A stretch of DNA of 64,000 nt from Cokeromyces recurvatus (lineage: Eukaryota; Mucoromycota; Mucoromycetes; Mucorales; Mucoraceae). The number at the start of each line of letters is the position of its first letter. The first letter of the stretch is position 1. This document shows positions 216 through 40,880 of this stretch, piece after piece. The translations under genes were made by a program, and so were the position numbers. The notes under the pieces are model-generated. The model saw nothing but the letters and a program-made list of their open reading frames with translations, was not told the origin of the DNA and made no database searches. Location of the stretch: positions 207,501 to 271,500 of the forward strand of contig NW_026251397.1 of NCBI RefSeq assembly GCF_025118155.1, in the 5' to 3' direction.

Positions 216-785
216 GTTCCAATGCCAGAGGGCAGTTACTATTCTCTCAAAGGACCGGTTACTTTTTTTCCTTAAAGTTCAATACCTTTAACAATCTTTA
301 TTTATTGGAAGATTTTTGTGTGTACTGGACTTATACATAATGTTCTTTTATACGATTAAAGAATTTTATTTAAAAGTTAAAAAATGACCAATGAGTGCAT
401 AGCATTTATATGCTCTTTTGCCTTGGTCAGATCGCTATGGAAAAAAGTAAAGAAACCCCCTTTTGGGATAAAAGGGAAAATGTTCAAGTGTATGTTTAAG
501 TGATGATAATCAACTATCAGAAAATCGTTGTCGTAATAAAAGAAGATGATTGACAAAGGGTCAGGGATTTGGTAGGTGTTCTTATATAAGGGATTAAATC
601 CTCCTGGTTATCTCTATTTCCAATTGCTTCATAAAGGGTTCTTCAGTGTATTACTAATGATCTTCTACTTTAAAATGCATCAGTGCTACGCTACGTAGAA
701 ATTGTATTAAAATATTATTACTTTCATCTGTTTGAGTTTCTCCATTAGGGTGGGCAAAAGCAAAATATCATCAGGTGTCTTTCTA
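216..785 (+). repeat. Left inverted terminal repeat of element 1
   Basis: It pairs with 3885-4270 in inverted orientation with high but imperfect identity, interrupted by an insertion in this arm. The best conserved part is 590-765. Confidence 0.75.
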
Positions 786-2448
786 ATAAAGTTAAACGCA
801 CTTATCTTCACCATTTGGTACTGTTCATTATATTTAAGGTCTATTTTAAAAGCTGTTGCTACATGATCTATAACATGTATTCGTGATAATATATTTACCT
901 TCTTTAATAAGTAAACCAACTACTTCTGGGTTGTAATATGAGCTTATTGATACCAGTTTGCATTTTCTTTACCCACCCAGTTTTACTAAATCAAACTCAT
1001 AATTTCCTTTATAATCGTTTCCCTTTCTCTTTACTTCAACAAAACAAAGCTCGAAAGTAATTGATGCATAGGGTTCAACAAATAAAATATAATCATGGAT
1101 CATTAACTGACTTGAAGAATGTTGTGGAGGATAGGTTAACCTGAAAATATATATATAAAAAAATAGAAAATGAATACAAATTAAAGTCTATTTATGCTTA
1201 CTTACCAATCATATTTCACTCCAGTTAGCCGTAAAATCCAGCAATGTGTTAAAAATGGCCGCAACAACTCAAAGATTTGATTAGCTTCACTTTCTTGTTT
1301 CTTTAAAATGCTGCTACTGAAAATGTGAGAAATAATATCTTTAGTTATTTTGAAAGCTGTTTTTATATGTCTACTACTGCTGCTGTTCTTTATCAGATCA
1401 ATAGCGTCTTCTCTTTCTTCTTCGTCCATATCTTCATTATATAATAGCTTATGTATTTTACAACGTACTATCAACACATCGTCTTCCATGAACTCTAGAT
1501 ATTGTTTTAGATTAAGATCCTTCATTACTGAAGGCTATTGTTCGGGAGAGGAGCCGAGATAAAGAACAATAACCCTTTTCTAAAATAAGACAAAGGACTA
1601 TTGAGAACCAATTGAAATAAAACAATGACTTACAGAAAACGGATGTCGGATAAATGTTTGCGTATTTGTGCTCCATTTTCTGTAATTTGGCGGTACTCTT
1701 TTAATGCCCTCGTCGTGTTGAAATTGTTGATCATCCACTAGATAGACTGAAATGTTTTAGTGACAAAAAAAGATAAGGGGGAGCTGAGATATTGAAGTGA
1801 AAACAAAATCTAACCTGAGGGTATTTATCATCTATATCACCAAAGTCTGTTTTGCTATAGCAACTGCTCGTGTAAGCATCAATGAACTTTGATTTTCTTT
1901 TTTTTTGTCAGCGCTATGCCACGACCAAAAAGCACTTTCTTCATCTTCAGAATGCTGACTACGCTTTAAAGGCAAATCTATATTTGGCAAAAAAAAATTT
2001 AATATTTATTTTATCATTGTTCTTCACAGAGCTATACTTACCGGTTTGTGAGGTACTTGATCCTGGAGCAGTTTGGTTGTAACGATACATATTAACAACT
2101 CCGTGTTCGTTTGTAATGGACACTTCATAGTTGATGTTTTGTGTGTAAGGTTTTTTTTTTGACACGATTGGGAACAAATGAATCCTTTATATTCTATTAT
2201 AAAATAAGAATAGATGGTTTAAATATATCAGTTTAAAATGGAATTGTTTACCTTCCAATCATCTAGTATCTTCTTTGCTGCGTCAGATCGTTTTTATCCT
2301 CTACTTTTGATGCTTCATCTACTTGATTCTTCAATATTTGTAATATATCACGAGAAGTATTCGATGGTTTGTTACTTTCTATCTCTATGAAAGCATCTTT
2401 TACAGACCATAGGTCGACTTCAGATTCCAAAAAATAGTTCGTTGTCAT
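704..2448 (-). pseudogene. Degenerate orphan gene inside element 1
   Basis: Minus-strand coding fragments run from an ATG at 2448 to a stop near 707. They are an N-terminal piece (2448-2263), a middle piece (2177-1959), 'SEDEESAFWSWHSAD' near 1950-1900, a 107-residue helical piece (1525-1202), and a C-terminal part with FELCFVEVKRKGN (about 1050-1010), EVVGLL (about 930-915) and a 70-residue ORF (919-707). Plausible GT/AG sites join some pieces, but frame changes and stops (for example after LVKLGG) show decay. From memory this resembles an expanded Mucorales family without a known function. The FVEVK strand is reminiscent of the (D/E)xK half of PD-(D/E)XK nucleases, which is inference. There is no signal peptide or membrane segment. 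Confidence 0.45.
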
Positions 2449-2778
2449 AAGTCAATGAAATGAAAGCAAAAAATAAAGGATAGAAACTAGCGGGCAGTTA
2501 TATACGCACCAGATTTCGTGCGCTTAGTTTTTTTTTTTTTTCTTATCTTGGTTTATTTGTTTTCATTGAGTAGCCAAGTGTAACAGTTTCCTTTTTACAA
2601 GTTTGCGATTGCTTTGTTTATAATATGCATGTAAGTTGTTGAACAACTATGTATTTCAGCCTCATCTGATCACTTATCATTGCAAAACTTTTAAAAAAAA
2701 TAATACGAAACGCCCAGCAATCTGAACAAGGAAAAAAAAATGGTGCGCAAAAAAAAAAGCCAATATCCTAAAGGATAA

Positions 2779-3532
2779 TGAACTCGGATGCTCCTTGATG
2801 GTCACCGAGCTACCTCTACAATGGTGTTTGTCCATTTGGTCAATCTGCCTTCCCTTTGCTTCCGTGCAGACACCTTGGTACTCAAGTACTGTCGTCGTGA
2901 TGCTTCTCTTCCAGAGGATTGTCTCTTGTCTTTGTTGTGCAGTTCGCTACCTAACCCCCTCTTTGTTTGGTCTTCGGTCCCTTCGTATGGTCCAAGATAT
3001 GCCTGCTTCCGTTTCTAGTGGTACTGATACTGCTGTGACCAATATAGCTGGTCAAATACCATTCTTCTTTGCTCTCTTCCTTCTTGGAGACCACTGACAA
3101 GGTACTGATCTGTACATGTCATCCGTCTCTTGGGGTTAAATCCCATCATGTTTGTCCCCGCCTCTTGTGCAGATAAATCTCGTCTTGTCCGTTGGCGTAT
3201 GGGTTGACACCCAGGTAAGCCCAAGCCTTGTGCTTGTGGTCTTGACCATATCTCTCGTCATCATCTGTTGCAGTCTTCCTTGGTTCCTGCTCATTATTGG
3301 GATACCCTTGCCACCTCTTCCGGCTGATTTTCCCAGATTAATCAACCGCCTCTTCCTCGTTCGTCTCCCTGTCCTCCCTTTTGGGTTGCTCCCTGCAAGA
3401 TCCTCTGGTACTTTGATACCCTGTATCATCCTGAAGGGGATGACTCAACTGATCAAATCTGGGTTGCTGTCCTCTTCCCCCTGGCGGTAATGAAGTCTTG
3501 TTCCTCTTATCCTTTCCTGCCCGTAGTCGAAA
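2779..3532 (+). pseudogene. Non-LTR retrotransposon (LINE) ORF2 C-terminal fragment
   Basis: A single plus-strand frame can be read from about 2779 to a TAG at 3530-3532 with no frameshift, but it is broken by several in-frame stops (near 3016, 3025, 3106, 3205 and 3331). Readable pieces include LVNLPSLCFRADTLVLKYC, then KSRLVRWRMG, a stop exactly where a Trp is expected, then GKPKPCACGLDHISRHHLLQ. The C-x-C-x4-H-x4-H arrangement fits the zinc-finger-like tail that follows the reverse transcriptase domain in LINEs. The remainder ends WVAPCKILWYFDTLYHPE. The stretch is clearly more GC-rich than its surroundings, as expected for an insertion. No reverse transcriptase core remains, so this looks like a 5'-truncated copy nested in element 1. 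Confidence 0.6.
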
Positions 3533-3725
3533 GATAGTGTGGATACCGTTACAACAAAAAGCGTGGCTTAGGTCTTAGTAAAAGTACGCGTGTACAGGAA
3601 AAAAACCCCACTTTAGCATTCTAATCATCAACACTGGTAGTATGGTCTGCTTCCGTGCCGCTCGAATTGAGTCGATCTGATGACTAGTAATGTCTGCTTG
3701 CTAGAGAATGCAGAAGAATACCCTT
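3533..3725. other. Probable 3' tail of the LINE fragment
   Basis: GC composition stays above the background here and falls at about 3720, where A/T homopolymers resume. It holds no ORF and probably belongs to the 3' untranslated part of the inserted retroelement. Confidence 0.35.
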
Positions 3726-3884
3726 TTTCTTTAAAAAATAAGTATATTATTTTTTTTTTAAAAATGTATCATTTACAGCAACAGATAACTAAAACAGTAA
3801 AGTTTTTTTTTTTCGTGGTCTAGTAATCTCAGTCCATGTAGACTTGTGTTTCATAAAAATATCTTATCCAAGTATATTTCTTAT

Positions 3885-4270
3885 TAAGACTTTGCTTTTG
3901 TCCACCATAATGGAGAAACTCAAACAGATGAAAGTAATAATATTTTAATACAATTTCTACGTAGCGTAGCACTGATGTATTTTAAAGTAGGAGATCATTA
4001 GTAATACACTGAAGAACCTTTTATGAAGCAATTGGAAATAGAGATAACCAGGAGGCTTTAACCCCGTATATAAAAACACTATGTACAGAGTCTAGTACAC
4101 ACAAAAATGTTCCATTAAATAAAGATTGTTAAAGAAGTTATCGAACTTTAGGGAAAAAGTAACCCGTCCTTTGAGAGAATAAAAAAAAACTGCCCTTTTG
4201 ACAACATTAAGGCCGTTTTTTAATTTTTAAAAACCCCGCCCTTTGATTTCTTTTATTGGCATTGGAACGA
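3885..4270 (-). repeat. Right inverted terminal repeat of element 1
   Basis: This is the inverted copy of the left arm. The block 3909-4050 matches 600-745 closely, including the duplicated coding end of the orphan gene (codons for MEKLKQMKVIIF). Confidence 0.75.
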
Positions 4271-4470
4271 CCATATCTATTTTAGTGTGACATTATTTGA
4301 AAGTACAATAGGATTTTATAAAGGTAATTTTTATTTCTATTAAATATATCGTTTTTTTTTTAGGAGGGTGTTGTAAGATAGAAGTAAGGTATTATTACAT
4401 AATATAAAATTATATATATTATGTGTCTTTTTGGTTATATCGTAATTGAAATCGTATCATTTTTCTTTTT

Positions 4471-7174
4471 TTAATTAAACATTTCTTCAACAAATACTTC
4501 ATAATCATATCCTTCGGTTTGATTAATTGAACTACGAGGCATTGCTGTCTTTAGATAATCAATCATATGCATTGGAATTTGACTCATTCTCAAGTCCAGT
4601 TCTGTTATAAAAGGCTTATCACCTGACATTGTTTTAAATGATTCCAAGAGTTGACCTGGCGTAGTTTTATCTTCAGTTACTGAAACCATGAATCGAATAA
4701 ATTGTTCAAATGACATATAATCAACACCATTCGTAGTATCATAAAAGATACTCTCTAATTTTTCATTATCATAAATGATACCTAAGCTAGAGAGTGCGTA
4801 TTTAAATTCATATACTGATAAAGTATTTGTATAATCCTTATCAAAATATCGAAATGTTTGTTCAAATTCCTCAAGTTGAAGTGGTGTAAGATTTGTCATA
4901 TTACGAGAAACAATCTAATCATTTAAAAAAAAAATTATTAACATAGTTTTATTTTAATTTGTAATCATAAATACCTGATTTTGTATAAATGCACTTTTCT
5001 TTTGTACTGCTTCCTTTACTAGATCTAATCCAAAAGTCAAGTCTTCTAATGAATATACAGTATAATCATTTTCTTCTGTATGTGCTTCTTTGCATTCTCC
5101 ATCAAGAATTTCAATCATTTCTAGAGATTCTTGCAATGGTTCGAATAAATCGGTCAATCCTTGAACTATATCAAGTTGAGATTGAAGACTGCCTTCAAGT
5201 TCTACTAATTTAGCTGAAATTGAATCCAATTGATGTTGAAAATCATTTGCTGCATCAGCAAAGGCCTTACGAAGTCCCTCTTTAATCCTATTGTAATCAA
5301 GATAGCGAATCTATAAGTATAAACATATATATTTGTATTCTCCATTACTTACTCTCTAATAGTCCGATTGATTCTGCGATGATATTTTGCTTCATTTTGT
5401 AAAAGAGTATTCCAAGTATTGTCTAAATCTTTTAAAGTTAATCCAGCTGGAGGATAATAAGGCTTTAAATTATATGTCTTTGCTTTCGTTTGAATATTTC
5501 CTAACAATGCATCGATATCTCTTTTCTCAGCAACCCAAGCTCTTTTTTCAGTACTCTTGTAGATATCAAATGCTGTACTTTTCTCTTTTGCATCCATATA
5601 ACTATCTGATAACTCTGTATTTTCCCATTCCTTTTGAATAAATGTTACTGCCTTCATAAGCTATAGAAAAGAAAAACGAATCAATAAAAAAAAAATAGAT
5701 AGATAAAAAAAAAGAGAATTGATTTACTTTACAGCACAAACACGTTGTTCGTATTGATGTTCCATTTCCCAGACTGAAGCTAATACATCAGCAAATTTTG
5801 CTACTCTTCTTCCAGCCGTTTCAAATTCATCTTTAATATAAATTTTTTTTTTTTTTAGCAATCGATCTTTAAAATACAAGGTCACTATTCCTACCATGTG
5901 CAGAAAATGCATGGAAATATTCAGCAACATAAGTCATCACAGATTTTTCATCAGGTTTTGATATATCACACACATCTTCAACATCCAATAGTTGCTATAA
6001 AGAAATCAATATCTATTTTTCTACCCGTCCTGTATGTCTATATCACTTACAGGAATGTTTAATTTTTTAGCTGCTTCAAATGCAATAGCTGTATTTCCAT
6101 GTCTATCATTCTTTTTTTTTTAAAAAAAAAAAAAAAAAAAAAAGTCAGTTATTATGAATAGTGTATATTCTAAATAAGACATCGATGTATACCTTATCCA
6201 ATGAATGATAATCAATTAATTCAGGATGATGATGATGTATCAAAGCGCAACTGATAAATACAATATAAAAAAGTTAAAAGCGCTATCCTCTTTCTTTAAA
6301 TAAATATATATGTTTATGTGTATTTTTACAAGGCTAATCCATCTGTCCAACTATAAGTAAAGTCACGAATATCAACATCTTCATAGTTAGCTGTTTTACG
6401 TTGACACCATAATAAAAGACCTTCTTTTGCATTTTTACCATCTTGACTATTTAAAACAACAAGATTAAATAATAGGGATTTACATTTGCTATTTATTTAT
6501 TTATTTTTTTTTTTACTTACTTGATATCGGCAATAGTGAATCGTAAAATAATCGTCCACAACATACCCAAGACTAATTTTAAATTTTTATTCACTATATC
6601 TTCAGCTCCAATATTAGTTAAAGAAACACCCCTTTGTTTAATAAAATCCAAAGCTTTATTCACATTCTCCATTTTTTGAAAAATCATGTTTGGATTTTGA
6701 TTATAAGGTCGAAGTGATTCTCCACTAATAATTTCCTATATATATATAAAACGAATGAATAAAGGAAAAAAGAAGAGAGAGAGAGAAAAACAACTAAAGT
6801 CAACTTACAAGCAACTGAATTAATCGTACACCATTGGCTAGATCTTCGTTTAAATGAGTAACATTAGGAATACTTTTCAAGTCCAACTTATTATTCACCC
6901 ATTTTGTAAAAGCTAATTATAACATAAAGAATTCAATAAGGATTTTATTTTATTTTTTCTCTTTAATTCACTTTACTTTTCTTTTGAATGAGTGTCCATG
7001 CATTCACCATGGGTTGCTTGTCTATAGAATAAAGAAAGATCAGATATTCGGAGCTTCATTTTATTATAAAGGGGAGGGGAAGAGAGAAAAAAAAAAGAAA
7101 AAGGGTGTCTAACCTTCAAATGGCTTTTTCTTTAAAGAAAGTTGATTGAAATTAGATGATAAATAACTAGTCAT
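4471..7174 (-). CDS. Alpha-actinin-like actin cross-linking protein
   Basis: The multi-exon gene starts at an ATG at 7174 ([13 protein letters not shown]) and ends at a TAA at 4471. Joined exons give two calponin-homology domains. CH1 is marked by [19 protein letters not shown], and [17 protein letters not shown]2 is marked by [31 protein letters not shown] and [16 protein letters not shown] shorter spectrin-like coiled-coil rod follows, then a calmodulin-like EF-hand region in the last exon ([25 protein letters not shown] cut short here as one domain). The order CH-CH-rod-EF is that of alpha-actinin, and an estimated length near 640 residues matches the short-rod fungal form such as fission-yeast Ain1. 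It should bundle actin filaments at contractile rings and septa. The EF loop keeps only part of the acidic ligands, so calcium binding is uncertain. The exact junctions of about ten introns were only partly checked. Confidence 0.88.
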
Positions 7175-7629
7175 TATTTGAAATGAAGAGAGAGAGGAAA
7201 AGAGAGAGAGAGGGAGGAAAAAAAAGGAGTAAATAACAAATTTAGACAGTCCAATAAATAAATATTGTTTCCTTATTTGGGATAGACATAAACAACAGCA
7301 TAGCATAGCAACAATAATAATGAACTTTTTGTTATTCAACTCCGAAACGCGTTTTTATGTTGGTACGCCATTTTTCAAATAAAAATGACGATTGGATTAT
7401 TTAATAAATTTGTAAATATTTCATCATATTTGGAACCCCCACACTAGCGAGTAGTAGTAGTAGTAGCAGTAGTAGTGCTTACTACTACTACTATTACTAC
7501 TACCACTACTACCACTACTACAGACTACAGCTGTATTTATATTTATAATAACCCCGGATTTTTTCATTCTTTTTTTTTTTTCTTTATACTTCTTTTACTT
7601 TTTTTACTTTCTGTATTATTATAATAACA
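7175..7629. promoter_or_regulatory. Divergent upstream region with trinucleotide hairpin
   Basis: This 455-base gap separates the alpha-actinin gene (minus) from a membrane-protein gene (plus) and should hold both promoters. It contains GA-rich tracts (7190-7230) and a TAG/CTA trinucleotide inverted repeat at 7448-7526. No TATA box or transcription-factor site could be assigned with confidence. Confidence 0.45.
7448..7526. repeat. (AGT)n...(ACT)n inverted trinucleotide repeat
   Basis: About nine AGT units are followed by a GCTT loop and about twelve ACT-type units, with a few interruptions. The two halves are reverse complements, so the strand can fold into a long hairpin. Confidence 0.8.
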
Positions 7630-8349
7630 ATGATCATGAAGAATAAAGCAACAACAACAACAGGAAACGACAATAATAATAATAATAATAAAGTTTCAAA
7701 ATTCTTATTAGATCCTTGGTCAACAGTAAAAGTTGTTTTACCATCTGCAGCAGTTCAACTTGTAATTCATCAAACCCTATTCAAGAAAGCTTCTTTACGT
7801 GAACTTACTTTAGGCCTTACTTTATTAAATACGATTTGGTTTGCAACAACATTAAATCTTAGTTATCTTGAAACACCACTTGTTGTAAATGTACCCAGTT
7901 TAAATGAAGTAACTAAACTTGATGTGGGTAGACATAGATTTAATTGGATCAATAAGATAGAAGTAAGTAAATAAAGAGAGAACGATATATATATGGATAT
8001 TCATGTTTATGTTTATAAAAAAAAATAGGCTACTGTAAGTTTGATAAGTCTCGATCTTTACTTGAGTTGGAATGAACGAATTATAAACCATAATGGATTT
8101 GTAGATAATACATTAAAGTTGGCTACACTTGCACCTGTTGCTATCACTGTCTTTCAATCTCTTTATTTGTTACCTAAATTTAATCGACGAGCAGCCAAAG
8201 TAATTCAAGGAGAAGCAACTGCTAAAGAAATATGGGATCATGATCCATTCTTTTTAAAAGGTCATCGTGCGTATATCACATTAGACACAGTTAAAATTGC
8301 TGCTTTAGCTGTAGCTGGCCTTCGCTTTGGTCTTATGTTGAAAAATTAA
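7630..8349 (+). CDS. Uncharacterised small membrane protein
   Basis: Two exons, 7630-7962 and 8029-8349, join in frame (codon GAA, then GCT) through an intron with GTAAGT and TAG ends, giving 217 residues. An ATG at 7636 is an alternative start two codons in. After an Asn/Thr-rich N-terminus the protein has about four hydrophobic stretches (near KVVLPSAAVQLVIHQ, ELTLGLTLLNTIWFATT, KLATLAPVAITVFQSLYLL and the C-terminal VKIAALAVAGLRFGLML). A polar loop with EIWDHDPFFLKGHRAY lies before the last helix. I do not recognise the family. It shares an upstream region with the alpha-actinin gene. The intact frame and clean intron indicate a real gene. Confidence 0.75.
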
Positions 8350-8411
8350 TTTAAAGAAAAAGAAGAAGAAAAAAAAAATAAAAAAAAAAAGATGGTATTA
8401 TCATTGCCCTT

Positions 8412-8447
<36 letters not shown>

Positions 8448-8923
8448 CGCTTGTGCGTGTGCACAGACTAATATAATAATAAAGTAGTAGCATAAATCAT
8501 ATGACACCCTTTTATAATAAACTCCGGTATTCGGATAACTTTCCGCTTTTCTTTAACTAATTAAAAGAAAAAAAAAATTTTTTTTTTTAACTTATTTTAT
8601 CCAAGTATATGTTTGTTTATTTTATTTTAAAAAAGGGAAAGTAATATACAACAATGAAATGAACGAACAAATGTATCGGGAATTGTTTTAGAATAAAAAT
8701 ACAGCTTTTTAACACATTTACAAAAGGAGTGAAGAATATAATACAAAAAATAAAAAGGAATGATATAAAATCGGAATAAAAAGGGATGATGACGTTAGAT
8801 GGGTAAAAGGATGATGATGCTAAATGGGTAAAATGACATTGATTGGTTGATATATATATACACATATATGTATATGTATATGTGTGTGTGTGTGTATGTA
8901 TATAAACGAAATAAAGAGAGAAT
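8350..8923. other. Intergenic, convergent 3' regions with GT repeat
   Basis: It contains A-rich tracts, a (GT)n microsatellite at 8417-8444 and further TA/TG repeats near 8850-8900. It lies between two genes transcribed towards each other. I see no gene here. Confidence 0.5.
8417..8444. repeat. (GT)n microsatellite
   Basis: Fourteen GT units in the convergent 3' region after the small membrane-protein gene. Confidence 0.85.
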
Positions 8924-9258
8924 TTACATAAGAATAGAAGGAGGGAATATGATAGATTGTTGCTGTTGTTGATCTTGTTGAAGTAATAGTTGATATAGAT
9001 CTTCATTCTCTGTATTTGTTTGTGTTGAAGGGTAGAAAAAGGGAGCTTGAAGCATCAAGTGAGACATAGTTGGATTTGTCTTGGTAGATAATTGTTGAGG
9101 ATTTATCATACCATATGAAGACGGAAGAGTACCGTGATACATCATCCATGGTTGTGGAACATATCCAGTTGCTGTCAATGAAGAAGGTTCTGGTGTAGCA
9201 GAAGGCGACATTGTAAAATCACGACAAAGATCAAGAGGAGGAGGTTGAATTAAATCAA

Positions 9259-9290
<32 letters not shown>

Positions 9291-10508: not shown

Positions 10509-10828
10509 TTCTATTGTTTATCTTACTTAAATGGAAATAAAAAAATAAAAAAAAAATAAAATGGATAAAATGGATAAAGAAAGAAAGAAAGAAAGAAAGA
10601 AAGACACTTTATTATGATCCAGCAAAAAAAAAAATGTGTATTTATGTTAAGAAGGAATACAAAAAAAAAAAAAAAAAAATTTTTTTTATGTTTTACTTAA
10701 AAAAAAGGGGGGGAGGAGATTATTCAGTTAATAATGATAATATGGTGCGTTATTGTGTGTGTGTAAATAGAAAAAAAAATCAGCTTTTGAAGGGTTAGTC
10801 GTTGAAGTTTTTTTTTTTATTTTTTTTG

Positions 10829-10859
<31 letters not shown>

Positions 10860-11121
10860 TTCAGAACGAAAGTTGTAACTCAGTTACATTACTTTTCCTT
10901 TTCACGTTCTCCTCGATATTTATAGAAAGAAAGAAACATTGGTAAAGAAAAGACGACGTGTAACTCAAATTATTTTAGAGAAAGAATAAACCAATATAAT
11001 CTCTTATTTACATCTTCATGGTGTCTATCCTTTTGATTGGTTAATTTTTCTTTGATTGCCTAGAACTTTAATAACTAATTATTTTTGAACATTGCCAATT
11101 CAAAAGAAAATTCTGTCAAGT
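10509..11121. other. Upstream region of the homeobox gene, microsatellites
   Basis: It contains a (GAAA)n run at 10576-10602, an A run and adjacent T run near 10655-10686, and a poly-T tract of about 30 bases ending near 10857. It should include the homeobox promoter. No gene was found before element 2. Confidence 0.45.
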
Positions 11122-11325
11122 ACAGTCGGTCCGAACAAAATGTCGCCCAGTTAGAAATAAAATATCACTTAATTAACTGTCGTTGTTCACAAAATAAATT
11201 GTCGCCCGCTCAGGAACAAAATATCACCTTACCAGAAATAAAATATCGTCTTTCTGATTTAAAAAAAAAATTAGTAGTTTCATCTTTATAATTATTGCTT
11301 TCCCCAGCAGCTTTTTGAGATGAAG
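11122..11325 (+). repeat. Left TIR of element 2
   Basis: It carries at least four tandem-like units of about 20-22 bases (near 11131, 11152, 11215 and 11238), each starting GAA and containing AAAAT followed by RTC. It matches the reverse complement of 15210-15672. Confidence 0.75.
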
Positions 11326-11332
11326 AACTTTT

Positions 11333-11380
<48 letters not shown>

Positions 11381-12917
11381 CTTTTTGGCTAATTATTTTA
11401 TTAAATCCTACCACAACAGATTAAAGACATTTTTATTTAGGATGCAGTATAAACTTGAGATCGGGTCGTTTGATCTATAAGTTGAATCAAATTGTACCTT
11501 TAGTTTACAGACAGGGAGCTTTGTAAGGTCCTCGTTGGTATTAAGCAAGTTAACTTTGAATGAGAACGAAACAAAAAAAAAAAAATAACGATTAATAAAC
11601 AAAAACAAGTTTGTAATAATCCCTTAAAGGGAGGGGAGTTTATTAACCGTATAGAGAAATCAAATAAAAACTAGAAACAAAATCTAAACTAATTACAGAG
11701 TATTTACATGAAATCGGATATGACCTGGGGTTATTCTATTGTAACTGTTTCATTAATCAACCAGCAGAGTATATTTATAGGGATTGAGACTGTTTCCTTT
11801 TAATACATTTTTTATTGTTCTTTGACATCTATTGTCTTATGCACAATGTAACTTGCTCTATGGTAAAGATGACCCATATTAATTATAGATGAAACCTTAT
11901 AGTATGATTTTGCTATTAAATATAATAAATGTTTAGCATACCTTATTCTCCTCCTCATTTAATTATGCTTGAACCAAACGATATAGAGTTAATTCAGTAG
12001 AAATACATTATGTATACTGATAGTTATTCACTAATATCTTTTCTCTGAATCACAAAAGTGTATTTTATTTCGTTTTCTAAATACATCTTATTTAATGACC
12101 ATTTATTAGATAATATGTGCTTACAACAAAGATATTCAAAAAAAAAAACGCTACTTGATGATTGCTATTGTTGATAATACTAAAGTCATGTGCAAATCCA
12201 ATGAAAATTTTGATGATAGTGACAAAGTAAGTAATCGATAATAAGTATGTAAGTTCTTGTAGTTGTTCAGTTACAGCTAGTATATGCAAGCATATATTTT
12301 AGGTGTTTCCTGTGTTAGTAATTCCATTTTCTATGGACAGATGCATATATTTGCAGAACACAGAAACTCGTTCAAGTGTTGTTGGTAGTGGGGGGGTCGA
12401 TTATATCATCTTCTAAAAGATATGAGATCGTTTAAATACAGTACTCAAAAACGAAATTGGAAGATGTAAATATGCTGATGGTGATTGACGCTAGAGACAT
12501 TCAAGAGGATATCCAACTACTTAAAAATGCTATTTCCTCTTTTGAAGAAATTGGCCGCTCTTTTCAAACACATCCTTCTCGTCAAAACTTGATTTTTTTT
12601 TAACTCCTTATAATTTTTATGAATAAATACTGTTATATCCTTGTCAAAGTTACTTTATTTTCATAATTTATTATGTAAGCAAGATTTACTTTGAATTTTT
12701 CGTAAAAGTGATAGGTCTCGTGAAAAGGACCCATGAAACTTTCGACAATTTAGATATAAAACACTAACTGAAATACAATCCTTACGAATTCAAAAAAAAA
12801 AACAAGTATAAATAACTCATTCTAATGTCTTTGTTTGTGACAAAGTGTGCTTAACTCATATTCGTAACTAGCTTTTTAACATCAAGTGACCATGGCTTTG
12901 GTGTATATGCTTACACA

Positions 12918-12957
<40 letters not shown>
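12918..12957. repeat. Poly-A tract, about 40 bases
   Basis: An uninterrupted A run lies inside element 2. Length may be affected by sequencing. Confidence 0.8.
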
Positions 12958-12959
<2 letters not shown>

Positions 12960-13444
12960 ACAAAATGTTTAATGAAAAAGACGCGCGCTGCTATGATTCA
13001 CAGGTAATTAACATTGAATAAAAATAAACTAAAAAAGATAGGAAAAAGTACGTTGAGGTTTGTGAATAGTTTTATTGAGATAAAGGTTAGGCTACAAATT
13101 AAATTTTATAATAAAGGCAAATATTGTAAGGGTATTTTATATTATATCTTTCGTGAATAAGGATGATGAATAATAATAAGATTAAAAATATAACGGAATT
13201 ATATTTGATGATATAATTATTATAATATCAGGGATCATTATGTCTTTTGTATGTTTATTTTTATGTACTTGGAGTGAGATCAATTATTACGCATACTTGC
13301 ATTATTCTTAATTTATCTCCAGCTTGACGTACAAAGTTATTTTTATCAATTCATATTCAGCAGAGAATTAATAAAAGTAGATATATTTTTAGATGTAGAA
13401 CTTTATTTATTATTTTTCTTCAAAGGAGTAAATACATTTAATCT

Positions 13445-14330
13445 GTGTATAGGCAGAATTATCATAATAATGTATTATATGCTTTATTCTGGCTATTTAT
13501 CTTAACAAATCTTACAACTTTAACAGCTGGTTATCGATCTATTCTAGAGCATCTATTTAGCCCAAAACTATTGAAATCAGTGCGTGATTATGTAGTCAAC
13601 AGAAATCAGCAGGTGTCTTTCGATCAACAACCTTATTTTGGTGTTGAAGTCGATTATCGATAATTACATTAATCAGCGAGATGCAGACTAAAATTCGATT
13701 ACTACTTCTGTCAGAAAAAGGGCAAATGAAAACGAACAGTCTGTTGTAAATGCCATCGTAGAGCTTATACTAAATTTATATGATTGTGATATAAAGAGTT
13801 CCTATGAATCATATATCACAGCAAGCTTTGTTCATCCCTTTGTTCATGGACTGTTTGTTTCAAAAAAAAAATTGGAACAAAGGACCCGATTATAGAGTTG
13901 ACATATACAGGCCAAGTTACAAATACCAATAGACTAATGTCTACGACGAGTTCAAACCTGAAAATAATATTTCGCCAGCAGTGCTCATTATTGATTTTTA
14001 CCGCCTTGCTATTTTTAGCAAAGAGGCGATTGACAAGCACAGTCTTGAACAAGTCTTGGCTTTTCAGATCGTAAAGAATTACATAATCTTTTATTTGATG
14101 ATGCTTGCAAGTCATCAATTAATATACATTTACTGAATTGGCTCGGCTACCCATACCACTGAAGGAGTCAGAATTTCTCAAGCTGATTGGGCATTTAGAC
14201 AGCTGTATGTTCGTCACATCCGTATACAAACGATATAGTATACCATCAACAAGGGAAGTGGGAGAAATGAAATGTGACACCGCTTCTAGTTCATATTTGG
14301 AAGACTGCAAAGGAATACTTGCATATATAT
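13445..14330 (+). pseudogene. Frameshifted orphan gene inside element 2
   Basis: Plus-strand pieces in changing frames carry a coherent protein pattern. They include ILEHLFSPKLLKSVRDYVVN (from about 13540), NEQSVVNAIVELILNLYD and SYITASFVHPFVHGLF (13735-13850), and a frame change at the A9 run near 13860. After that come PDYRVDIYRPSYKYQ, a stop, and TNVYDEFKPENN and IDFYRLAIFSKEAIDKHSLE (13930-14050). The last piece in another frame (14155-14310) holds LIGHLDSCMFVTSVYKRYSI. From memory this is an expanded Mucorales family of unknown function. The DEFK strand may correspond to an E-I-K motif of a nuclease-like fold, which is inference. The start was not found and at least two frameshifts and one stop make the copy non-functional. 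Confidence 0.5.
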
Positions 14331-15071
14331 ATATATATATAAAGAGACACTGCCCAATATCATTTGAAAGCTAAATCATGTTATAGTTTAATAAATTTTA
14401 GTACTGTATGTTTTGAATACTGTAAATAAACGTAATTCTATCACGACTGAATGATCTATCAGCTAAAAAAGAATATAATAGCTAGTATGTATTCAATCGT
14501 CAACTTTTGAGTTGGATGTACTTTGTATAAAGTGTATATGTGTCAATTTTCAATCAAAGAAATACTACTGACTCTCTTCAGTTTTCATATTTTCCAAATT
14601 TATTACAAACAAGCAGCAATACATTGAAACATGAAATAATTGGCCAATAAGCTGATTTGATGGTTAACTTTTTTTTTTTTTTTTTTTTTTTTGATCTGCT
14701 ATTGCAAAATACTTTTTTTTTTCTTTCTTTTACTTTTATATATTTCTTTATTTTTGGGCTTATTGTGTAACTCGTACGTCCAAAAATACATTATTCACGA
14801 GATATGAATGATGATGCTTATTGTCGACCCAGTCTGCCAAAAATATTCAGCCATGATAGATTATATTACAAAAAAAACAGTCCCATATCAAAGTGGTTAT
14901 TCCTCACTCCATAAGCAACAACTGCAATAAAGGACTAAAATATGGAATTATTTTTTCATGAACCAGGATATCAGTATATCTGCACATACAATAAAATCAA
15001 GCTGAATAACATCATTTTACCAGTGTTGATTTACAGCAATTACGATATATAAACACTTTATTTTTTTTTTA

Positions 15072-15188
15072 TTAAGGACTCGTCAAGGTCTCGAAAACAA
15101 TGTTCAGATCGTCGATAGTCGTCATAACGTCTTCCATGGGATCGTACGTTGGGTACCCGTGTTCATCAAGAATGTTTTTTTTTTTCAT
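15072..15188 (-). CDS. Small intact ORF or exon in element 2
   Basis: An ATG at 15188 opens a 38-residue frame ending at TAA (15074-15072). It begins MKKKNILDEHGYPTYDPMED, continues with an acidic stretch and ends FETLTSP. The ATG directly follows a pyrimidine-rich tract and TATAG, so this could equally be the last exon of a larger gene whose earlier exon lies in or beyond the right TIR. Its codons are richer in G and C than its surroundings and no stop interrupts it, unlike the decayed orphan gene nearby. No family was recognised. Confidence 0.3.
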   Translation of the reverse strand: MKKKNILDEHGYPTYDPMEDVMTTIDDLNIVFETLTSP

Positions 15189-15265
15189 CTATATAAAAGA
15201 AAAAAAAAAGTGCTTCATTTCAAAAAGCTGCTGGTGGAAGCAATAATTATAAAGATGAAACTACT

Positions 15266-15307
<42 letters not shown>

Positions 15308-15364
15308 GAAAGACAATATTTTATTTCTGGTAAGATAATATTTTGTTCCTGAGTGGACGACAAT

Positions 15365-15508
15365 TGAGTTCTATCTACAAAATTTCTGCCAATCATATTA
15401 CAAGGAGTATTTAAATACACCCTGTATTACATAATATTTAATTGGACGGATTTTAAGTTACGCTTTATTTTTTTGGGATAAACATATTTATTTTGGGATA
15501 TTTTGATG

Positions 15509-15568
<60 letters not shown>

Positions 15569-15592
15569 AGGGAGATCTTTACACAAGTATTT
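15365..15592. mobile_element. Insert in right TIR, possible Tc1/mariner end fragment
   Basis: This block is absent from the left arm. It contains TACACCCTGTATTACATAAT, which resembles the ACAGGGTGTA-type ends of fungal Tc1/mariner elements as I remember them, then a poly-A tract of about 59 bases (15509-15567) and a short CAGGGAGATC segment. It is probably a remnant of a later insertion. A clear partner end was not found. Confidence 0.35.
15509..15567. repeat. Poly-A tract, about 59 bases
   Basis: This is the longest homopolymer in the window, inside the insert of the right TIR. Its true length is hard to trust. Confidence 0.8.
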
Positions 15593-15919
15593 ATTTATCA
15601 GAACAATGATAGTTAATTTCTGATCAAGTGATATTTTATTTCTTAATGGGCAACATTTTGTTCGGACCGGGTAACATTAATTATTGAAACTATTGGAAAA
15701 CAAAGATCTACGTTTAAAATTATATTAGAGTTAAGGAGTAAGGAACATTGATGTTATTTTTGTAAATAACTAATTAACTAAATTTTTAGTAACTTGATAT
15801 AAACAAGCTTTTTTTTTCTTTAGTTACTCTTTCTTTTCTTTTTTTTCTTTTCTTTTTTCATTCTTTTTTTTTTCTGTCTTTTTTTTTTCCCTTTTTGTTT
15901 ATAAATATACTTTGGTTAC

Positions 15920-23982: not shown

Positions 23983-24026
<44 letters not shown>

Positions 24027-27526: not shown

Positions 27527-27538
27527 TAGTATTTACTT

Positions 27539-29098: not shown

Positions 29099-29176
<78 letters not shown>

Positions 29177-31942: not shown

Positions 31943-31990
<48 letters not shown>

Positions 31991-33928: not shown

Positions 33929-34428
33929 AAAAAATATTTATATATGTATTTAATATATAAAATTAGAATATATATGGATATTAGATTCTATCTAATTGAA
34001 TATAAAAAGCGTGTTTCTTTAAGTTAAGTATAGAGTATAAAATAAATAACAATTTTGTACTATTAAATAATATAATTGATATGTATATATTTGTATAGGA
34101 GAGGAAAAGAAATATATAAATTATTTCAGTAAATTTTACTCATATTCACTGTTAATAATGCAAATATAATCTTCTTTTGGAAAATTAGCGCGCTTGTCAA
34201 AAGTTAGATTCACTTACTACAACAAAAAAATAAAAGATGTATAATACTGGTTATATAATTTAAAACAATAATGTAACCATACTCAGTAATACATAAGGAA
34301 GAAAAAAAAAAGGAGGGAAGGGGAAGGGAGAGGAATCACATTTGAATAGTATGCTTTCAATTTGAACTCCTAATATTTTATTTTATTTTATTTTTCTTCT
34401 CTCCTTTTCTATATACCATAAAGGAGAT
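33929..34428. other. Intergenic between formin start and rhodanese gene
   Basis: It is AT-rich and should hold the formin promoter and the 3' end of the rhodanese-like gene. A purine-rich stretch lies at 34300-34335. No gene was seen. Confidence 0.45.
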
Positions 34429-34872
34429 TTAACAATAGCATGATGAAGGTGCTTTTTCAACAATTTGGAAGCCATGTTTAATCCAATCCAATATTCCTCC
34501 TTCTACATTATATACATTTTTAAAAACAAATTTAGATATTATATATTCTGCAGTAAATCGGCTTCGTCTACCCGATCTACAAGAGAGTATAAGCTGTTTA
34601 AAGTGTTTACTATTAAATAAGGGCTGTTGTAATATTATAAATTATTAAATTTTTACCTGCACGTTTTTATCTAAATTATGAAATTTATTATTAAACAATT
34701 CCGGGCTTGTATTTGTCAAAGAATAGGGTATATTCATATCATATCCGTCAATTACACCTTGCTCTTCTAATTCACTGGGTTCTCAGATATCAATAAACAA
34801 AGCCGAAGATGGTTTAAGATGAAGCCAAATAGAAAGGTCATTTACAGAGAAAGTATGAATTACAGTTACCAT
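34429..34872 (-). pseudogene. Rhodanese-like gene with internal TGA
   Basis: Exons 34872-34657 and 34623-34429 join in phase 0 to a 136-codon reading frame with one in-frame TGA at codon 30 (34785-34783). The context is LFIDI-stop-EPSELEEQG. Rhodaneses have DVREPSE here, so an Arg codon CGA to TGA change explains it. The rest looks intact: the active-site loop reads LSCRSGRRS with the catalytic Cys, then YNVEGGILDWIKHGF, a typical rhodanese C-terminal motif. The single-domain length is normal. The intron is only about 33 bases, short even for this genome. This is either a recently inactivated gene, a sequencing error, or stop readthrough. No second lesion was found, which argues that any loss is recent. 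Confidence 0.7.
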
Positions 34873-34995
34873 TTTTTTTCTTAATTATAAAAATAAAAAT
34901 AGTCAGTAATTATCTATGATTTTATAGGTTATCAATATGATGAACAATAGATGTATAAAAATATCACAATATCATGCTAAGCAAATAAAATTTAA

Positions 34996-35031
<36 letters not shown>

Positions 35032-36631
35032 CAACGACACATACACGTAAAGTTCTGTTGTCTCTCTCTCTCTCTGTGTGTGTGTATATATATATATACT
35101 AAGATAAAGAAAAATAGCACCTGAAAGTCTTTCAAGTTGGAATAAAACAGACTTTATGGTTAAATTTCATTCTATAGATATCAAAGTTATTTTTTTTTTA
35201 TTAATTATAATCACTTACATTCAAAAGTAGGCACTCACTAACAATGGAGAATAATTTGTTTTTTGTAATACAGTAGTACTTGTTCCTTAAATGGTTAATA
35301 ATGCATAATCTCCGAAGAGCCCTAATAAAACGAGTGATTTCAGAGTTTTTTTTCATAAAAAAAAAAGGAAGGGAGAAGAGTATGAAATTCAATATATATG
35401 GTTTTCAAGGATTCACCAGCAGCGCTTACAATAACTGTATAAGCTAAATGAAGTCTCAAGTTCAGCTTAAATATGTTTGAAAACTAAAAAAAAAAGAGAA
35501 AGAAAAAGGATAGGTGACAGATGTCATGCTGTTCCTTGAAGTGAGTAACAGTATTTTAAATCTCAGTTAAATAGGTGAAAGATTTCACAATTGACTTGAT
35601 AAATTTATTGTTTGTAAATTAGATATCTTACTTCTTTCAATTAGAAATAAACTTAGTTTAATTTAGAAGAATGAAATTACTATAATAAAAATTCTTATAA
35701 ATAAATATTTTACAGGATAAATAAAAAGAAAAGAGGAAGTAACAAATAGAATAGATATCAGTGATTTAACCTGTTAATGTAATGAAATGCCTGTTTTAGA
35801 TTTAAAGAACTGGCAAAAGTAAAAAGTGTACAGTAATAGAAAAATAGCACTGTTAGCTATATTTCTTCTTTTAGTATTATTAATTTCTATAAATCAAAAT
35901 ACTTTGAAACAAAACGGTGCTGAAAAAACGTTGAAAACAAAATCCCATAACTTCAATAAAAAGAAAAGAAATTAAATTGAAAGCAAAGAGTATATCAAAG
36001 TCCACAATATAGTCAAGCTGGTTGAAGTTGGTATTTACAACTTAAAAAAAAAATTACTACTATATTTCTATGATTAACATAATAAGGGAAAAAAAAAGCA
36101 CATGCCTCCTTATTTTTCTTTCCTTACCTCAAGAGAAAATAATTAGTTTAATAAAATTAAGAATTATATAAAAAGAAATCCCTTAAACGAAAATACTAAG
36201 TTGACCCTTCACGTTGCTAAACCTTGTCAAAGCACTAGAATTCAAAGCTGTTCAAGCTAAATTAAGCACCACTCTGTAACTTATTGGAACAGATATACGA
36301 ATGAGGAATTAAAAATAAAATGAAATAAAACACCAATGCTATTTGTTTTTTTTTTTTAACTTGGTTAGTATAACCTTCTCTCAAGTCAAAAAAAAAAGTC
36401 TCCAATTCTTCAGTATGCCTAAAAACTGTTTTCGAAATCAGACAATATACATGTATATATAAATATAGATTCATATACATATTTGTATAAAATTCCAGTT
36501 ACAGTTTCAATTTTAATAGGCTAAAAACGTATTATATATTAACATTCTTTTTATATAATAAAAGTATTTATAAGATTGGTAGATGAGTGAAAGGGTATAT
36601 ACAGAATACATGAATTATAAATAATAGAGTA
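34873..36631. other. Long AT-rich gene-poor stretch
   Basis: It contains a poly-T tract of about 34 bases (34998-35031), CT/GT repeats at 35062-35090 and AT-rich sequence without coding character. Short frames (for example 35392-35201 on minus) carry no motif I recognise. Some weak repeats (AGCTTAAAT, AAGCTAAAT types near 35440-35470 and 36250) could be remains of an old repeat. Confidence 0.4.
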
Positions 36632-37306
36632 TTATTTTGTCTTTGAATAAATGATGACTAGAATAATAATGGCAATAATCAATAAAGTACTAAAACCTAG
36701 TGAGAAAAACCTATTCAAAGTCCTCCATCTTTTAATCATTTTATAATCACTATCATATTTTCTATATAGTTCATCGTTCATTTGCACAGGAAAAAACGAG
36801 CCGATCCACCATAAAGGAGGAAAGATGAATCCAAATAAGAATAAGAAAGCACCCAACGAAAAAAAGTGGTTAACAGTTAGATAATGACTAGAAGAAGTTT
36901 GTTCAGCAAAAATTGAATCGTATTCAGACCACGTGTTATTGTTTCCTTTCTCATTATTATTATCTTGCTGAGAAGTTAATACATGAGGTGGTTTAGCATC
37001 TAAATCATTTGACAGATATGTCCAAAATGAAGCAGAAGATATTGGGTCTTGTTTTTGTGTATGATGAGTAGGAGTTGCTACGTTTAAACGATCAAGTAAA
37101 ACAGGTGCGTCCTCTTTAAAATGAGTTCCAATATAATTATTAAAAGATGAATCAGAATCTCTAGGCTGGACTACTATAGCATTCTGTGGCAAAGGAGTGA
37201 CAAGTCTAGGGGTTGTTTGTTGATAAGAAGATACAGTGCTATTAACTGTTTGTGATAATATACTCTCTGTAAGACGATAAGAAAATTCTCTATTATTATC
37301 TGTCAT
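36632..37306 (-). CDS. Uncharacterised two-helix membrane protein
   Basis: A single exon of 224 residues starts at the ATG at 37306. The N-terminal 150 residues are polar and Ser/Thr/Gln/Asn-rich, without domains. The C-terminal third has two membrane helices: LGAFLFLFGFIFPPLWWIGS and, after a basic loop with RWRTLNRFF, SLGFSTLLIIAIIILVIIYS. The FPPLWWIGSFFP plus WRTLNRF pair is a pattern I have seen in conserved fungal membrane proteins of unknown role. I cannot name it. It probably sits in an internal or plasma membrane with the N-terminus cytosolic. Element 3 begins about 370 bases upstream of its start. Confidence 0.8.
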   Translation of the reverse strand: MTDNNREFSYRLTESILSQTVNSTVSSYQQTTPRLVTPLPQNAIVVQPRDSDSSFNNYIGTHFKEDAPVLLDRLNVATPTHHTQKQDPISSASFWTYLSNDLDAKPPHVLTSQQDNNNEKGNNNTWSEYDSIFAEQTSSSHYLTVNHFFSLGAFLFLFGFIFPPLWWIGSFFPVQMNDELYRKYDSDYKMIKRWRTLNRFFSLGFSTLLIIAIIILVIIYSKTK

Positions 37307-37633
37307 ATTTCTTTTTATTGAAAAAAGAAAGAAATGATAATAAAAAAAAAGCTAATAATAATCAATTAATATTTAATTTATTCATAAAAAAAAAAAAAAA
37401 TTGTCACAACAAAATGTATATCATTATTATTTGGTTGACATTTTTCACTATTTTTGAAAAAAAAATCTTATTAAAATTCAACAGATATACAAGTTCTATG
37501 TAGCAATTTATGCTGCTTAATAATATTTAAATAAACTGTTTGATATATATACAAACTTCTTTTTTTTCTAGTCGGATATTATCAGTAATAATTTCTTTAC
37601 AATAGTCACTATCGTACTGTAGTATGTTTAGTA

Positions 37634-37675
<42 letters not shown>
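37307..37675. other. Upstream region ending in poly-T at element 3
   Basis: AT-rich, with a poly-T run of about 34 bases (37640-37673) abutting the left TIR of element 3. No gene was seen. Confidence 0.45.
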
Positions 37676-37676
<1 letters not shown>

Positions 37677-37770
37677 CCAAACCAACATTAATTTTTTGTA
37701 GATTATAAGCCCAATCCTCAAAGTTCAGGAACTCAACTCAACTAATTGTATTATGTCGTTACAAAGTTAA
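37674..37770 (+). repeat. Left TIR of element 3
   Basis: About 85 bases match the reverse complement of 40788-40880 with roughly five mismatches. Confidence 0.85.
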
Positions 37771-38649
37771 TATAAAGTCGATCTATAAAATGAAAATAAA
37801 ATCATATGCATAATCAATTCAACTATAACTATTAAACTTAGAATGTGATAGCTATTAAAGATACATGAAATTTTAATATACCAATTGAATAGAGGAAGCC
37901 TTTAAAATAACCTTTTATCACTTTAGATTGATTTATTTTTTTGATATACTTTGATGGATCAAATTTAGTCGGCTCCTTGTCATCACTGTTATTGCTATGA
38001 TCTATATTGTTATAGCTATTGTTGGATTCGTTAATCCTGCCAACGCTATCTACATTATCTATATAATACTTTTCTTCTCTATTGTATCAGTCTAATTCAG
38101 CACTACACAGTGTAATTAAATTGGTAGCACTATAAAGAATACAGTTTTATTATCTACAACATAAGAACAAACAAGATAATTCAGCTTCAAAGATTTAATA
38201 ATAATAATACTTTATAAATCAAGCACAGCATATAACTACAATCAATTTTCGTTGAATATCAAATAACTTGCAAAATATATAAATAGTTTTTTTATTTATT
38301 TTTTGACCCTCCTCGTAGCACTAATTTCAATTCCTTTTTCCTTTTAAATCTTTTTTATCTTTTTAATCCTTTTACAACGAAAAGGTCAGTACTTTCAATT
38401 TATTCAATGGATGTTACCACTTCCCCATCTTCTTCTGGTGCAAATATTTTTCTACTTTTTGAAATGAATTCTATGTCACTTTTAATGTATTTTTTCTTAA
38501 TATTAGTTTAATCCTACCACATACATTCAATGCCTGAACTTTAATATATTCGCTAAGAGGCTTAGATATTTAGTTGGCTGGCAAGTTAAGAAGATAATAA
38601 TTTTTTGTAGATTTAGGTCTAGTTATTCTTCTAATGTAAGGATTAATCT

Positions 38650-39060
38650 TTATTGGTAATAAAGGAAATACATAAGTATGAGATACTCTTGCATAAGTGG
38701 TTTTAAGATGTTATCTGAAATTGTATTAGGGGAATATATTTTAAATGCTTTGATCAAATGTTTACATGCCGTTGTATAATAGTTATTCTCTTTGATTAAG
38801 ACTTTTTTCTCCGTGTTTTTCTTCGATCTAAATCTATTTGCTGCCATGACGATAACTATAGGGTTTGCCTTATATTTATATCGAATATTCAAGCAATATT
38901 TGTTTACTCTAGTTATAAATTTGACGTCAACTACATTCTGTATTTTCACTAAAATAAGCGAGTTGACACATTTGTATTGCTTTGATGGTGGGAAAGTATA
39001 GAATATTTGACTTTTTTCGAGATGAAAAATCAATAGTAATACTTTCATATATGTTTCCAT
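38650..39060 (-). CDS. Orphan ORF in element 3, possible nuclease-like
   Basis: This 136-codon frame starts at the ATG at 39060. Its central part reads NSLILVKIQNVVDVKFITRV and YCLNIRYKYKANPIVIVMAA. The V-K-I-Q strand followed by a helix and a hydrophobic strand recalls the E-x-Q/VEIQ pattern of Rpn/PDDEXK-type transposon-associated nucleases, and from memory an expanded Mucorales family. A catalytic Asp upstream is not evident in this frame, and the C-terminus runs into unrelated-looking sequence (ILMYFLYYQ), so it is probably a fragment of a larger, decayed gene. It may continue into the Asn/Asp-rich stretch near 38090-37900. Function is unknown. Confidence 0.35.
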   Translation of the reverse strand: METYMKVLLLIFHLEKSQIFYTFPPSKQYKCVNSLILVKIQNVVDVKFITRVNKYCLNIRYKYKANPIVIVMAANRFRSKKNTEKKVLIKENNYYTTACKHLIKAFKIYSPNTISDNILKPLMQEYLILMYFLYYQ

Positions 39061-39524
39061 TTATTTATTTATTTTCTTCTATGTTCCCATTCTAGTTAAA
39101 ATAGTAAAAAGAGCACTGTGATATTAATGAAGAGATAAACTTAAAAAAAAATATTCAACGATAATATTTTCAATATATTGGGTCTGTAATAAGAGCCTAC
39201 TGACGAGATCAGTGTCTAGTCGTTTATACAAAGTAATATTTTACCGTATTTCATTAAGTCAAATCATCAGACATAATAAATTTTACGAAAAATGCAACAA
39301 CAACAAAAAGAGCTTTTTCTCCTACAATTATAACATGTATAGTAGATGAAAATTAAAATAAAAAATGTTTACATGTTTTATGGATTAACACATTTGGACC
39401 TATATCTTGACAACAGAAAGAGAAAAATCAACACTAGAGGAGACACAAAGCTAAGCTATTTTTAAAGTGCAAATTGAATTCAAAAACATTAGTAGCATGT
39501 GAACTTTTTTTTTTTTTTTTTTTT

Positions 39525-40200
39525 TCACTCACACCATCGTTTAATATTAATACAATTTATGACCAACTTTTGTAGAAAGTACGGTTTGAATATTGACTGG
39601 CATACTTTCAACTTATCTTCTACATTTGTCTTGTGTAAAAATATCGTATTCTTTATCAATACAATTTCGCCATTAATAAATAATTTTTCTTTAATCCCAG
39701 TATCATACACACTAAGTTTCAATTTTAAGTGTTGCGATAAGTACTCTATTGATTTTAACTCAGGGCTCTAAGATAATCATTCATTGATCGAGATTACATC
39801 ATTATCGAGAATCTGCTTCTAGTAGACGTTGATGTACATTTTAGGGTCATTATCCTGCTGAAAATAAGCAACATTTCATGACATGCCGTTATATCCTAAG
39901 TTATTCGTAAGTGTAGCTCCTAGAATACGCTGGTGATTATATGGAATTCACATTATCATAATATATCTGATTTGTGTACTTTGAATCCTATTTAATCTTA
40001 TAACCTCAAATTGTAATAGAATTCTCCCTCCATCATGCTTGAATATAATATCAAAATAATGAGACTTCAACGGATCGCCCTGCCTTGACCAATAGTATTT
40101 GTATCCATCTAGACCTTATATATTAACTTTTGTCACGTTAAAGAACACAAATATGCTGCCAGTCATCGACAATTCAGTTCTAGTACTTTGGGGGTGTAAT
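39525..40200 (-). pseudogene. Tc1/mariner-type transposase remnant
   Basis: On minus, in changing frames, the catalytic region of a DDE transposase can be followed. The pieces in order are VFFNVTKVNI, stop, GLDGYKYYWSRQGDPLKSHY and FKHDGG (about 40150-40050), then ILGATLTNNLGYNGMS, stop, NVAYFQQDNDPK (about 39930-39850), then SPELKSIEYL and QHLKLKLSVYDT (about 39780-39705). The last frame runs to a stop at 39525. FQQDNDPK and SPELKSIE correspond to the second Asp and the third acidic region (SPDLNPIE) of the Tc1 catalytic triad. The first Asp (usually SDETK) reads FNVTK here. Stops replace Trp at two sites. The copy is inactive. No N-terminal DNA-binding part was found. Confidence 0.65.
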
Positions 40201-40787
40201 AGAACGAGCTCTGGGTATAAGCATAAGGAGTATTATAGTACATAAATTACATAATAAAGGATAAACTATAAAGTAAAACATTGTATCGCATCTTGTAAAT
40301 AATATAAACCATATTGATATCCAATCATCTAGACGTGTCAACTAAATAGGACATTATGTCAGTTCTAAACCTATTTTATATAACTCTGATAAAGGAATTC
40401 AGGTCGTCTTTGATTCAAATAAGAAAATAACACTTTTTAAAAGACATCAGGAGCTTATAATCAGATCATTATAACACCTAATAAATAATCCATATAGATC
40501 AGTACCTTGAATCAACAAGACATATATATTTGAATACTAACAAACTTATTTCATAGCTATTTTTATTTCTTTGATTCAGGATTCAATAGTATGAGTCCAA
40601 GTAGTTGTTTAGACGCGAAATAAGCTTTGTCTTTATTTTTCTTCTTTACATTGAATGAACAGTCTCAAACTGTGCTTTTTTTTTTCTTTTTGTCTTCTCT
40701 CTTTCTTTTATTTTTTTTTCCTTTTAAAAATATCATCTGTACCACCATATCGTGCCTAATTTATATCGACTTTGCTTGTTCTTATGG

Positions 40788-40880
40788 TTAACGACATAAT
40801 ACAATTAGTTGAGTTGAGTTCCTGAAATTTGGGGATTGGGCTTATAATCTACAGAAAATTAATGTTGGTCTGGTCTAGAA
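40788..40880 (-). repeat. Right TIR of element 3
   Basis: Inverted copy of 37674-37770. The match ends at GGTCTGGTCT near 40877. Confidence 0.85.

What the first reader, a model, noticed from the sequence alone, without database searches (positions are those of the whole stretch)
216..40880. Three different TIR elements each carry an orphan, possibly nuclease-like ORF
Elements 1 (216-4270), 2 (11122-15672) and 3 (37674-40880) have unrelated inverted ends, yet each holds one decayed gene that I link only to expanded Mucorales families. In each a strand-like motif with E-x-K or K-x-Q chemistry precedes a helix: FVEVKRKG, VYDEFKPE and LVKIQNVVD. If these are PD-(D/E)XK-type proteins, the elements may form an undescribed class that moves with a restriction-nuclease-like enzyme, or that carries one as cargo. 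The inverted ends are seen directly. The nuclease link is inference.
Basis: partly seen in the sequence, partly recalled or inferred. Interest (0 to 1): 0.75.

Follow-up and report, generated by a model that had tools for sequence, protein, structure and literature searches.

The report
Fungal Tc1-type transposons with nuclease-like genes
Three old DNA transposons in the fungus Cokeromyces recurvatus each hold the wreck of a nuclease-like gene, and relatives of these genes often sit next to a Tc1-type transposase, so such jumping genes may have picked up restriction-enzyme-like partners more than once.

Summary
The inverted ends are real (95%, 91-93%, 95% alike); E1 and E3 have TA on both sides, E2 on one. 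The window is Cokeromyces recurvatus, Mucorales. The three ORFs belong to three Mucorales families. E3's (C) has a good model with a PD-(D/E)XK-like fold and D-x18-E-x-Q, the spacing of E. coli RpnA D63/E82/Q84. E1's (A) and E2's (B) show PD..ExK motifs and align with each other, but have no reliable model. So the nuclease guess is supported for one family, plausible for two. As the enzyme of movement it is not supported: E3 also holds a decayed Tc1/mariner transposase, and at 11 of 16 fetched relatives no inverted repeat spans the gene. Near relatives, transposases within 700 bp lie upstream on the same strand in 8 of 10 cases; L044 holds both genes inside one TA-flanked, 99% alike pair of ends. 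Best reading: Tc1/mariner-type elements, moved by DDE transposases, with PD-(D/E)XK accessory genes. Mariner elements with other endonucleases are known (PMC3627910): a new variant of a known kind.

The parts
211..4273 (.). E1, TIR element between two TA dinucleotides (209-210, 4274-4275)
576..764 (+). E1 inner 5' TIR arm (pairs with 3891-4079); codes for the end of gene A on the minus strand
286..331 (+). E1 outer 5' TIR arm (pairs with 4089-4134); holds the stop of gene A near 302-304
3891..4134 (-). E1 3' TIR arm, with an inverted copy of the end of gene A
305..2400 (-). Gene A, decayed, several exons; ExK motif FVEVKRKG in 975-1139; end split by the 226-bp repeat
350..575 (.). Repeat inserted in the E1 5' TIR, at least 38 further copies in the genome
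11123..15673 (.). E2, TIR element; TA at the 5' side only
11192..11343 (+). E2 5' TIR arm (pairs with 15195-15370)
15195..15370 (-). E2 3' TIR arm, inner part
13692..14133 (+). Gene B remnant, broken by frame changes; VYDEFKPE motif at about 13939
37675..40875 (.). E3, TIR element between two TA dinucleotides
37666..37761 (+). E3 5' TIR arm
40789..40884 (-). E3 3' TIR arm
39528..40232 (-). Decayed Tc1/mariner-type transposase
   Evidence: best E 1.5e-49 among the set, which includes its own pieces
38650..39060 (-). Gene C remnant, open for 136 codons; the catalytic D and E of the family are replaced by Q and K

Best explanation
E1, E2 and E3 are old Tc1/mariner-type TIR elements that carry a PD-(D/E)XK gene as a second, accessory gene. 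They moved by cut-and-paste at TA by a DDE transposase: encoded in cis in E3 (now dead), supplied in trans for E1 and E2, where none is found. Shown: the TIRs, TA flanks of E1 and E3, the transposase remnant in E3, the fold of family C, and transposases beside several relatives. Inferred: that the elements moved as units with the nuclease gene aboard, and what the nuclease did. My best guess is an Rpn-like, poorly specific DNA cutter that raises recombination or gap repair, so that the element is copied back after excision. Passive carriage is the main alternative.
Against: No transposase found in E1 or E2, also at a lax threshold. In L037, L039 and L041 a TIR copy lies between transposase and nuclease gene, so there the transposase element is complete without it. 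The 700-bp cut-off was chosen after seeing the data and mixes two ways of measuring gaps; within 1.5 kb the count is 8 of 14 (P 0.01). L030 and L041 have transposase pieces downstream. 11 of 16 loci lack a spanning inverted repeat, and L035's is a 2.2-kb palindrome of another kind. E2 lacks TA at its 3' side. No Pfam family reaches its cut-off for A, B or C. No two-gene element was seen in several copies.
Confidence: 0.5

Rival explanations
1. Passive passengers: TIR elements captured pieces of a large host gene family, as Pack-type elements do (recalled), and the genes have no role in movement.
For: All three window genes are broken or have lost catalytic residues while the TIRs are still 91-95% alike; the families are common outside TIRs.
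Against: Three families in three different TIR sets, plus L044 and C8 sharing one TIR; same-strand order beside transposases; gene A end built into the E1 TIR.
Confidence: 0.28
2. Chance neighbours: PD-(D/E)XK genes and Tc1 elements share transposon-rich regions, and TIR pairs around the genes come from separate insertions.
For: In L037, L039 and L041 the transposase has its own TIR pair; 7 of 16 loci hold a transposase somewhere in 10 kb, not counting the short L030 piece, against 13% expected, as a transposon-rich region would give.
Against: Strand and order bias; one TIR pair around both genes in L044 with 99% identity and TA flanks, and in E3.
Confidence: 0.17
3. The PD-(D/E)XK protein is itself the enzyme that moves the elements.
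For: E1 and E2 hold no other recognisable enzyme gene.
Against: TA flanks and ends typical of Tc1/mariner, DDE transposase in E3 and L044; most fetched relatives have no spanning TIR; the RpnA lead points to a poorly specific nuclease (PMC5350276).
Confidence: 0.05

Closest known systems
[quoted passage not shown] abstract start and passages seen)
   Same: TIRs, TA target sites, Mariner transposase followed by an endonuclease gene (one said to hold an EcoRII-type catalytic domain), and elements that keep Mariner TIRs and an accessory gene but no transposase.
   Different: Those endonucleases are GIY-YIG or EcoRII-C, with methyltransferase or Fanzor beside them, in algal viruses; here a Mucorales fungus with Rpn-like (C) and other PD-(D/E)XK-like (A, B) genes. 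The Mucorales Fanzor1 elements named in the passages seen are MuDR-like.
Rpn/YhgA-like nucleases (PF04754, PF12784; PMC5350276, abstract and passages seen)
   Same: PD-(D/E)XK fold with Q in place of the usual lysine; D42/E61/Q63 of P0001 spaced like RpnA D63/E82/Q84.
   Different: Fungal, below Pfam cut-offs (PF04754 best E 0.1 in 2 of 21 members; PF12784 E 0.21 in one); activity untested.
CreTc1 of Cokeromyces recurvatus and other Mucorales Tc1 (PMC5630946; passages seen)
   Same: Tc1 transposase with long TIRs (CreTc1: 1,672 bp, TIR 218, 60 copies) in the same species.
   Different: E3 (3.2 kb) and L044 (3.7 kb) are longer and hold a second gene.

Membership tests
Tc1/mariner superfamily element | terminal inverted repeats | tested here: met
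   E1, E2, E3
Tc1/mariner superfamily element | TA target site duplication: E1, E3 | tested here: met
   also L044
Tc1/mariner superfamily element | TA target site duplication: E2 | tested here: not met
   TA at the 5' side, not at the 3' side; may be decay
Tc1/mariner superfamily element | IS630/Tc1-type DDE transposase: E3 | tested here: met
   decayed remnant; reference transposase of L041 has DDE_3 at E 3.9e-29
Tc1/mariner superfamily element | IS630/Tc1-type DDE transposase: E1, E2 | tested here: not met
   no match at E 1e-4; at 0.5 only one 20-residue match in E1, E 0.39. Both are called Tc1/mariner-type by ends only
PD-(D/E)XK superfamily: family C (E3) | core fold with D on one strand and E-x-K/Q on the next | tested here: met
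PD-(D/E)XK superfamily: families A and B (E1, E2) | same fold | tested here: inconclusive
   motifs; A-B hhalign 228 columns, E 0.0017, probability 15; A and B against C found nothing; A model pLDDT 50; B not modelled
Rpn family | D-x18-E-x-Q active site | tested here: met
   lost in the window copy
Rpn family | score above Pfam cut-off of PF04754 or PF12784 | tested here: not met
   hence 'Rpn-like' only
Rpn family | metal-dependent DNA cleavage | not testable with these tools
   needs purified protein

The most novel reading that the evidence does not exclude
In Mucorales, Tc1/mariner transposons carry PD-(D/E)XK nucleases of several families as working second genes that help the element persist, by steering repair after excision or by cutting DNA that lacks the element: a eukaryotic parallel to TnpB/Fanzor in transposons, built on an Rpn-type nuclease.
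Probability: 0.18. Interest if true: 0.78.

Novelty: new variant of a known kind. Interest (0 to 1): 0.5.

Why it matters
Accessory nucleases in transposons (TnpB, Fanzor) turned out to be RNA-guided cutters. If fungal Tc1/mariner elements have also taken up Rpn-like and other PD-(D/E)XK nucleases, these large Mucorales families of unknown function would gain a testable role, and the question why transposons keep nucleases that are not their transposase could be asked in a second, unrelated enzyme family.

Tried and rejected
Pfam scans of single members of the three families gave nothing above a cut-off; profile searches of the Protein Data Bank by sequence gave no meaningful match for A, B or C. 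Rfam found nothing in the window. In the PDB comparison of C no Rpn structure is listed among the rows shown; that is no evidence against kinship. A search for a second TIR pair between the two genes of E3 and of L044 found none. The first-look idea that L039 is one large two-gene element was dropped: its transposase has its own TIR pair.

Papers: ten searches; in their listings I saw no paper on PD-(D/E)XK genes in Mucorales Tc1/mariner elements. Only open-licence PubMed Central text was searched. 'Transposons to toxins' (REase domains from transposons) is known to me by title only; its text was not read.

Full report
Setting. The window is G000:C3:207501-271500 of a 28.05-Mb genome. Protein matches with 100% identity name it Cokeromyces recurvatus (P0001, P0019), and E1's gene is partly annotated there (P0020).

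Ends. All three inverted repeats exist at about the stated places. E1 and E3 are bounded by TA on both sides, E2 only on its 5' side; E1 and E2 begin CAGT after the TA, as Tc1 elements commonly do (the last clause is recalled). The E1 5' arm is cut by a short repeat that has at least 38 further copies, which explains why its arms look broken.

E3 is more than an orphan ORF. On the minus strand at 40232-39528 lies a decayed Tc1/mariner transposase, and gene C follows at 39060-38650 on the same strand. The gene C ORF of E3 has relatives in the genome: 12 further places, and 33 matches with another member as query, many with open frames. Across 21 aligned proteins from several Mucorales the motif is D42-x18-E61-x-Q63: D in 16 of 18, E in 16 of 19, Q in 18 of 19 with a letter at that place. 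E. coli RpnA needs D63, E82 and Q84 (PMC5350276, passages): the same spacing.

Families A and B. E1's gene belongs to family A (12 proteins; one named 'NERD domain-containing'), E2's to family B (25 matches in the genome). Both show PD...ExK and align with each other over 228 columns (E 0.0017, probability 15); neither aligns with C. The A model failed (pLDDT 50). I call A and B PD-(D/E)XK-like on motif only. In E1 about the last 50 codons of gene A lie in both TIR arms, and the same tail is present in R. azygosporus, Phycomyces and Parasitella proteins, so in E1 the gene and its ends are one structure. Whether those other species have the TIRs could not be tested.

Do these genes travel with transposases? 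In 9.9-kb stretches around 16 relatives, 5 have inverted repeats that span the gene (L032, L035, L037, L039, L044) and 7 hold transposase matches longer than a short piece (L031, L036-L039, L041, L044), against 13% expected per locus. Directly upstream and on the same strand they stand in L036, L037, L039, L041 and L044 and in E3, at 45 to 468 bp, and at C33:140271 and C2:398103 by the genome list. Downstream pieces on the same strand occur at L030 and L041. So within 700 bp 8 of 10 are upstream and same strand (P 4e-4), within 1.5 kb 8 of 14 (P 0.01). The cut-off was set after seeing the data, and gaps were measured in two ways (to ORF edges in the fetched loci, to match edges in the genome list). 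The DDE_3 list shows 150 of at least 184 matches, and 150 of 403 candidates were scored, so the genome count is a lower bound.

The cleanest case is L044 on contig 19: a 3.7-kb element with 351-bp ends, 99% alike and flanked by TA, holds a decayed Tc1-type transposase and 45 bp behind it a broken family B gene. The same end recurs at 89% on contig 8, 785 bp before another family B gene. Against this, in L037, L039 and L041 a TIR copy separates the transposase from the nuclease gene, so there the gene is merely a neighbour, perhaps the step before capture.

Mechanism. Shown: Tc1/mariner-type ends, TA, a DDE transposase in E3 and L044. Inferred: a DDE transposase moved E1-E3, in trans for E1 and E2. 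What the nuclease does is open. RpnA is a metal-dependent, poorly specific endonuclease that raises recombination (PMC5350276, abstract and passages). By analogy a C-type protein could promote copying back after excision, or damage cells that lose the element. The window copies cannot do this now.

Known or new. Mariner elements with transposase, endonuclease (GIY-YIG or an EcoRII-type domain) and methyltransferase or Fanzor are in print, as are TIR-and-TA elements with the accessory gene alone (PMC3627910, passages). Long-TIR Tc1 elements of Cokeromyces are in print (PMC5630946, passages). What I did not find in ten searches is Rpn-like or other PD-(D/E)XK genes in Mucorales Tc1/mariner elements. 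Hence a new variant of a known kind.

Noticed in passing
window 350-575: A repeat of about 226 bp with at least 38 further copies (83-89% alike), inserted in the E1 TIR and gene A end; no Rfam family matches.
   Followed up: partly
window 2700-3540: GC-rich insert in E1; + strand reading holds CACGLDHISRHHLL, which looks to me like the end of a LINE-type reverse transcriptase gene (recalled motif). Pfam found nothing in four open pieces.
   Followed up: partly
L035 1780-3994 / 6232-8446: Inverted repeat of 2,215 bp, 99.8% alike, around two family C genes on opposite strands.
   Followed up: no
P0026 (Rhizopus arrhizus, 630 aa): One gene model that holds, in order, motifs of families C, B and A; either a model running over neighbours or a real cluster of the three.
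   Followed up: no
L041 6215-7561: Intact 449-codon Tc1-type transposase; five places in the genome score alike with a 450-codon open frame, which suggests recent activity.
   Followed up: no
L030 3821-4075 and L041 4249-4377: Transposase remnants just downstream of the nuclease genes, same strand, so these genes may sit between two transposase pieces.
   Followed up: partly
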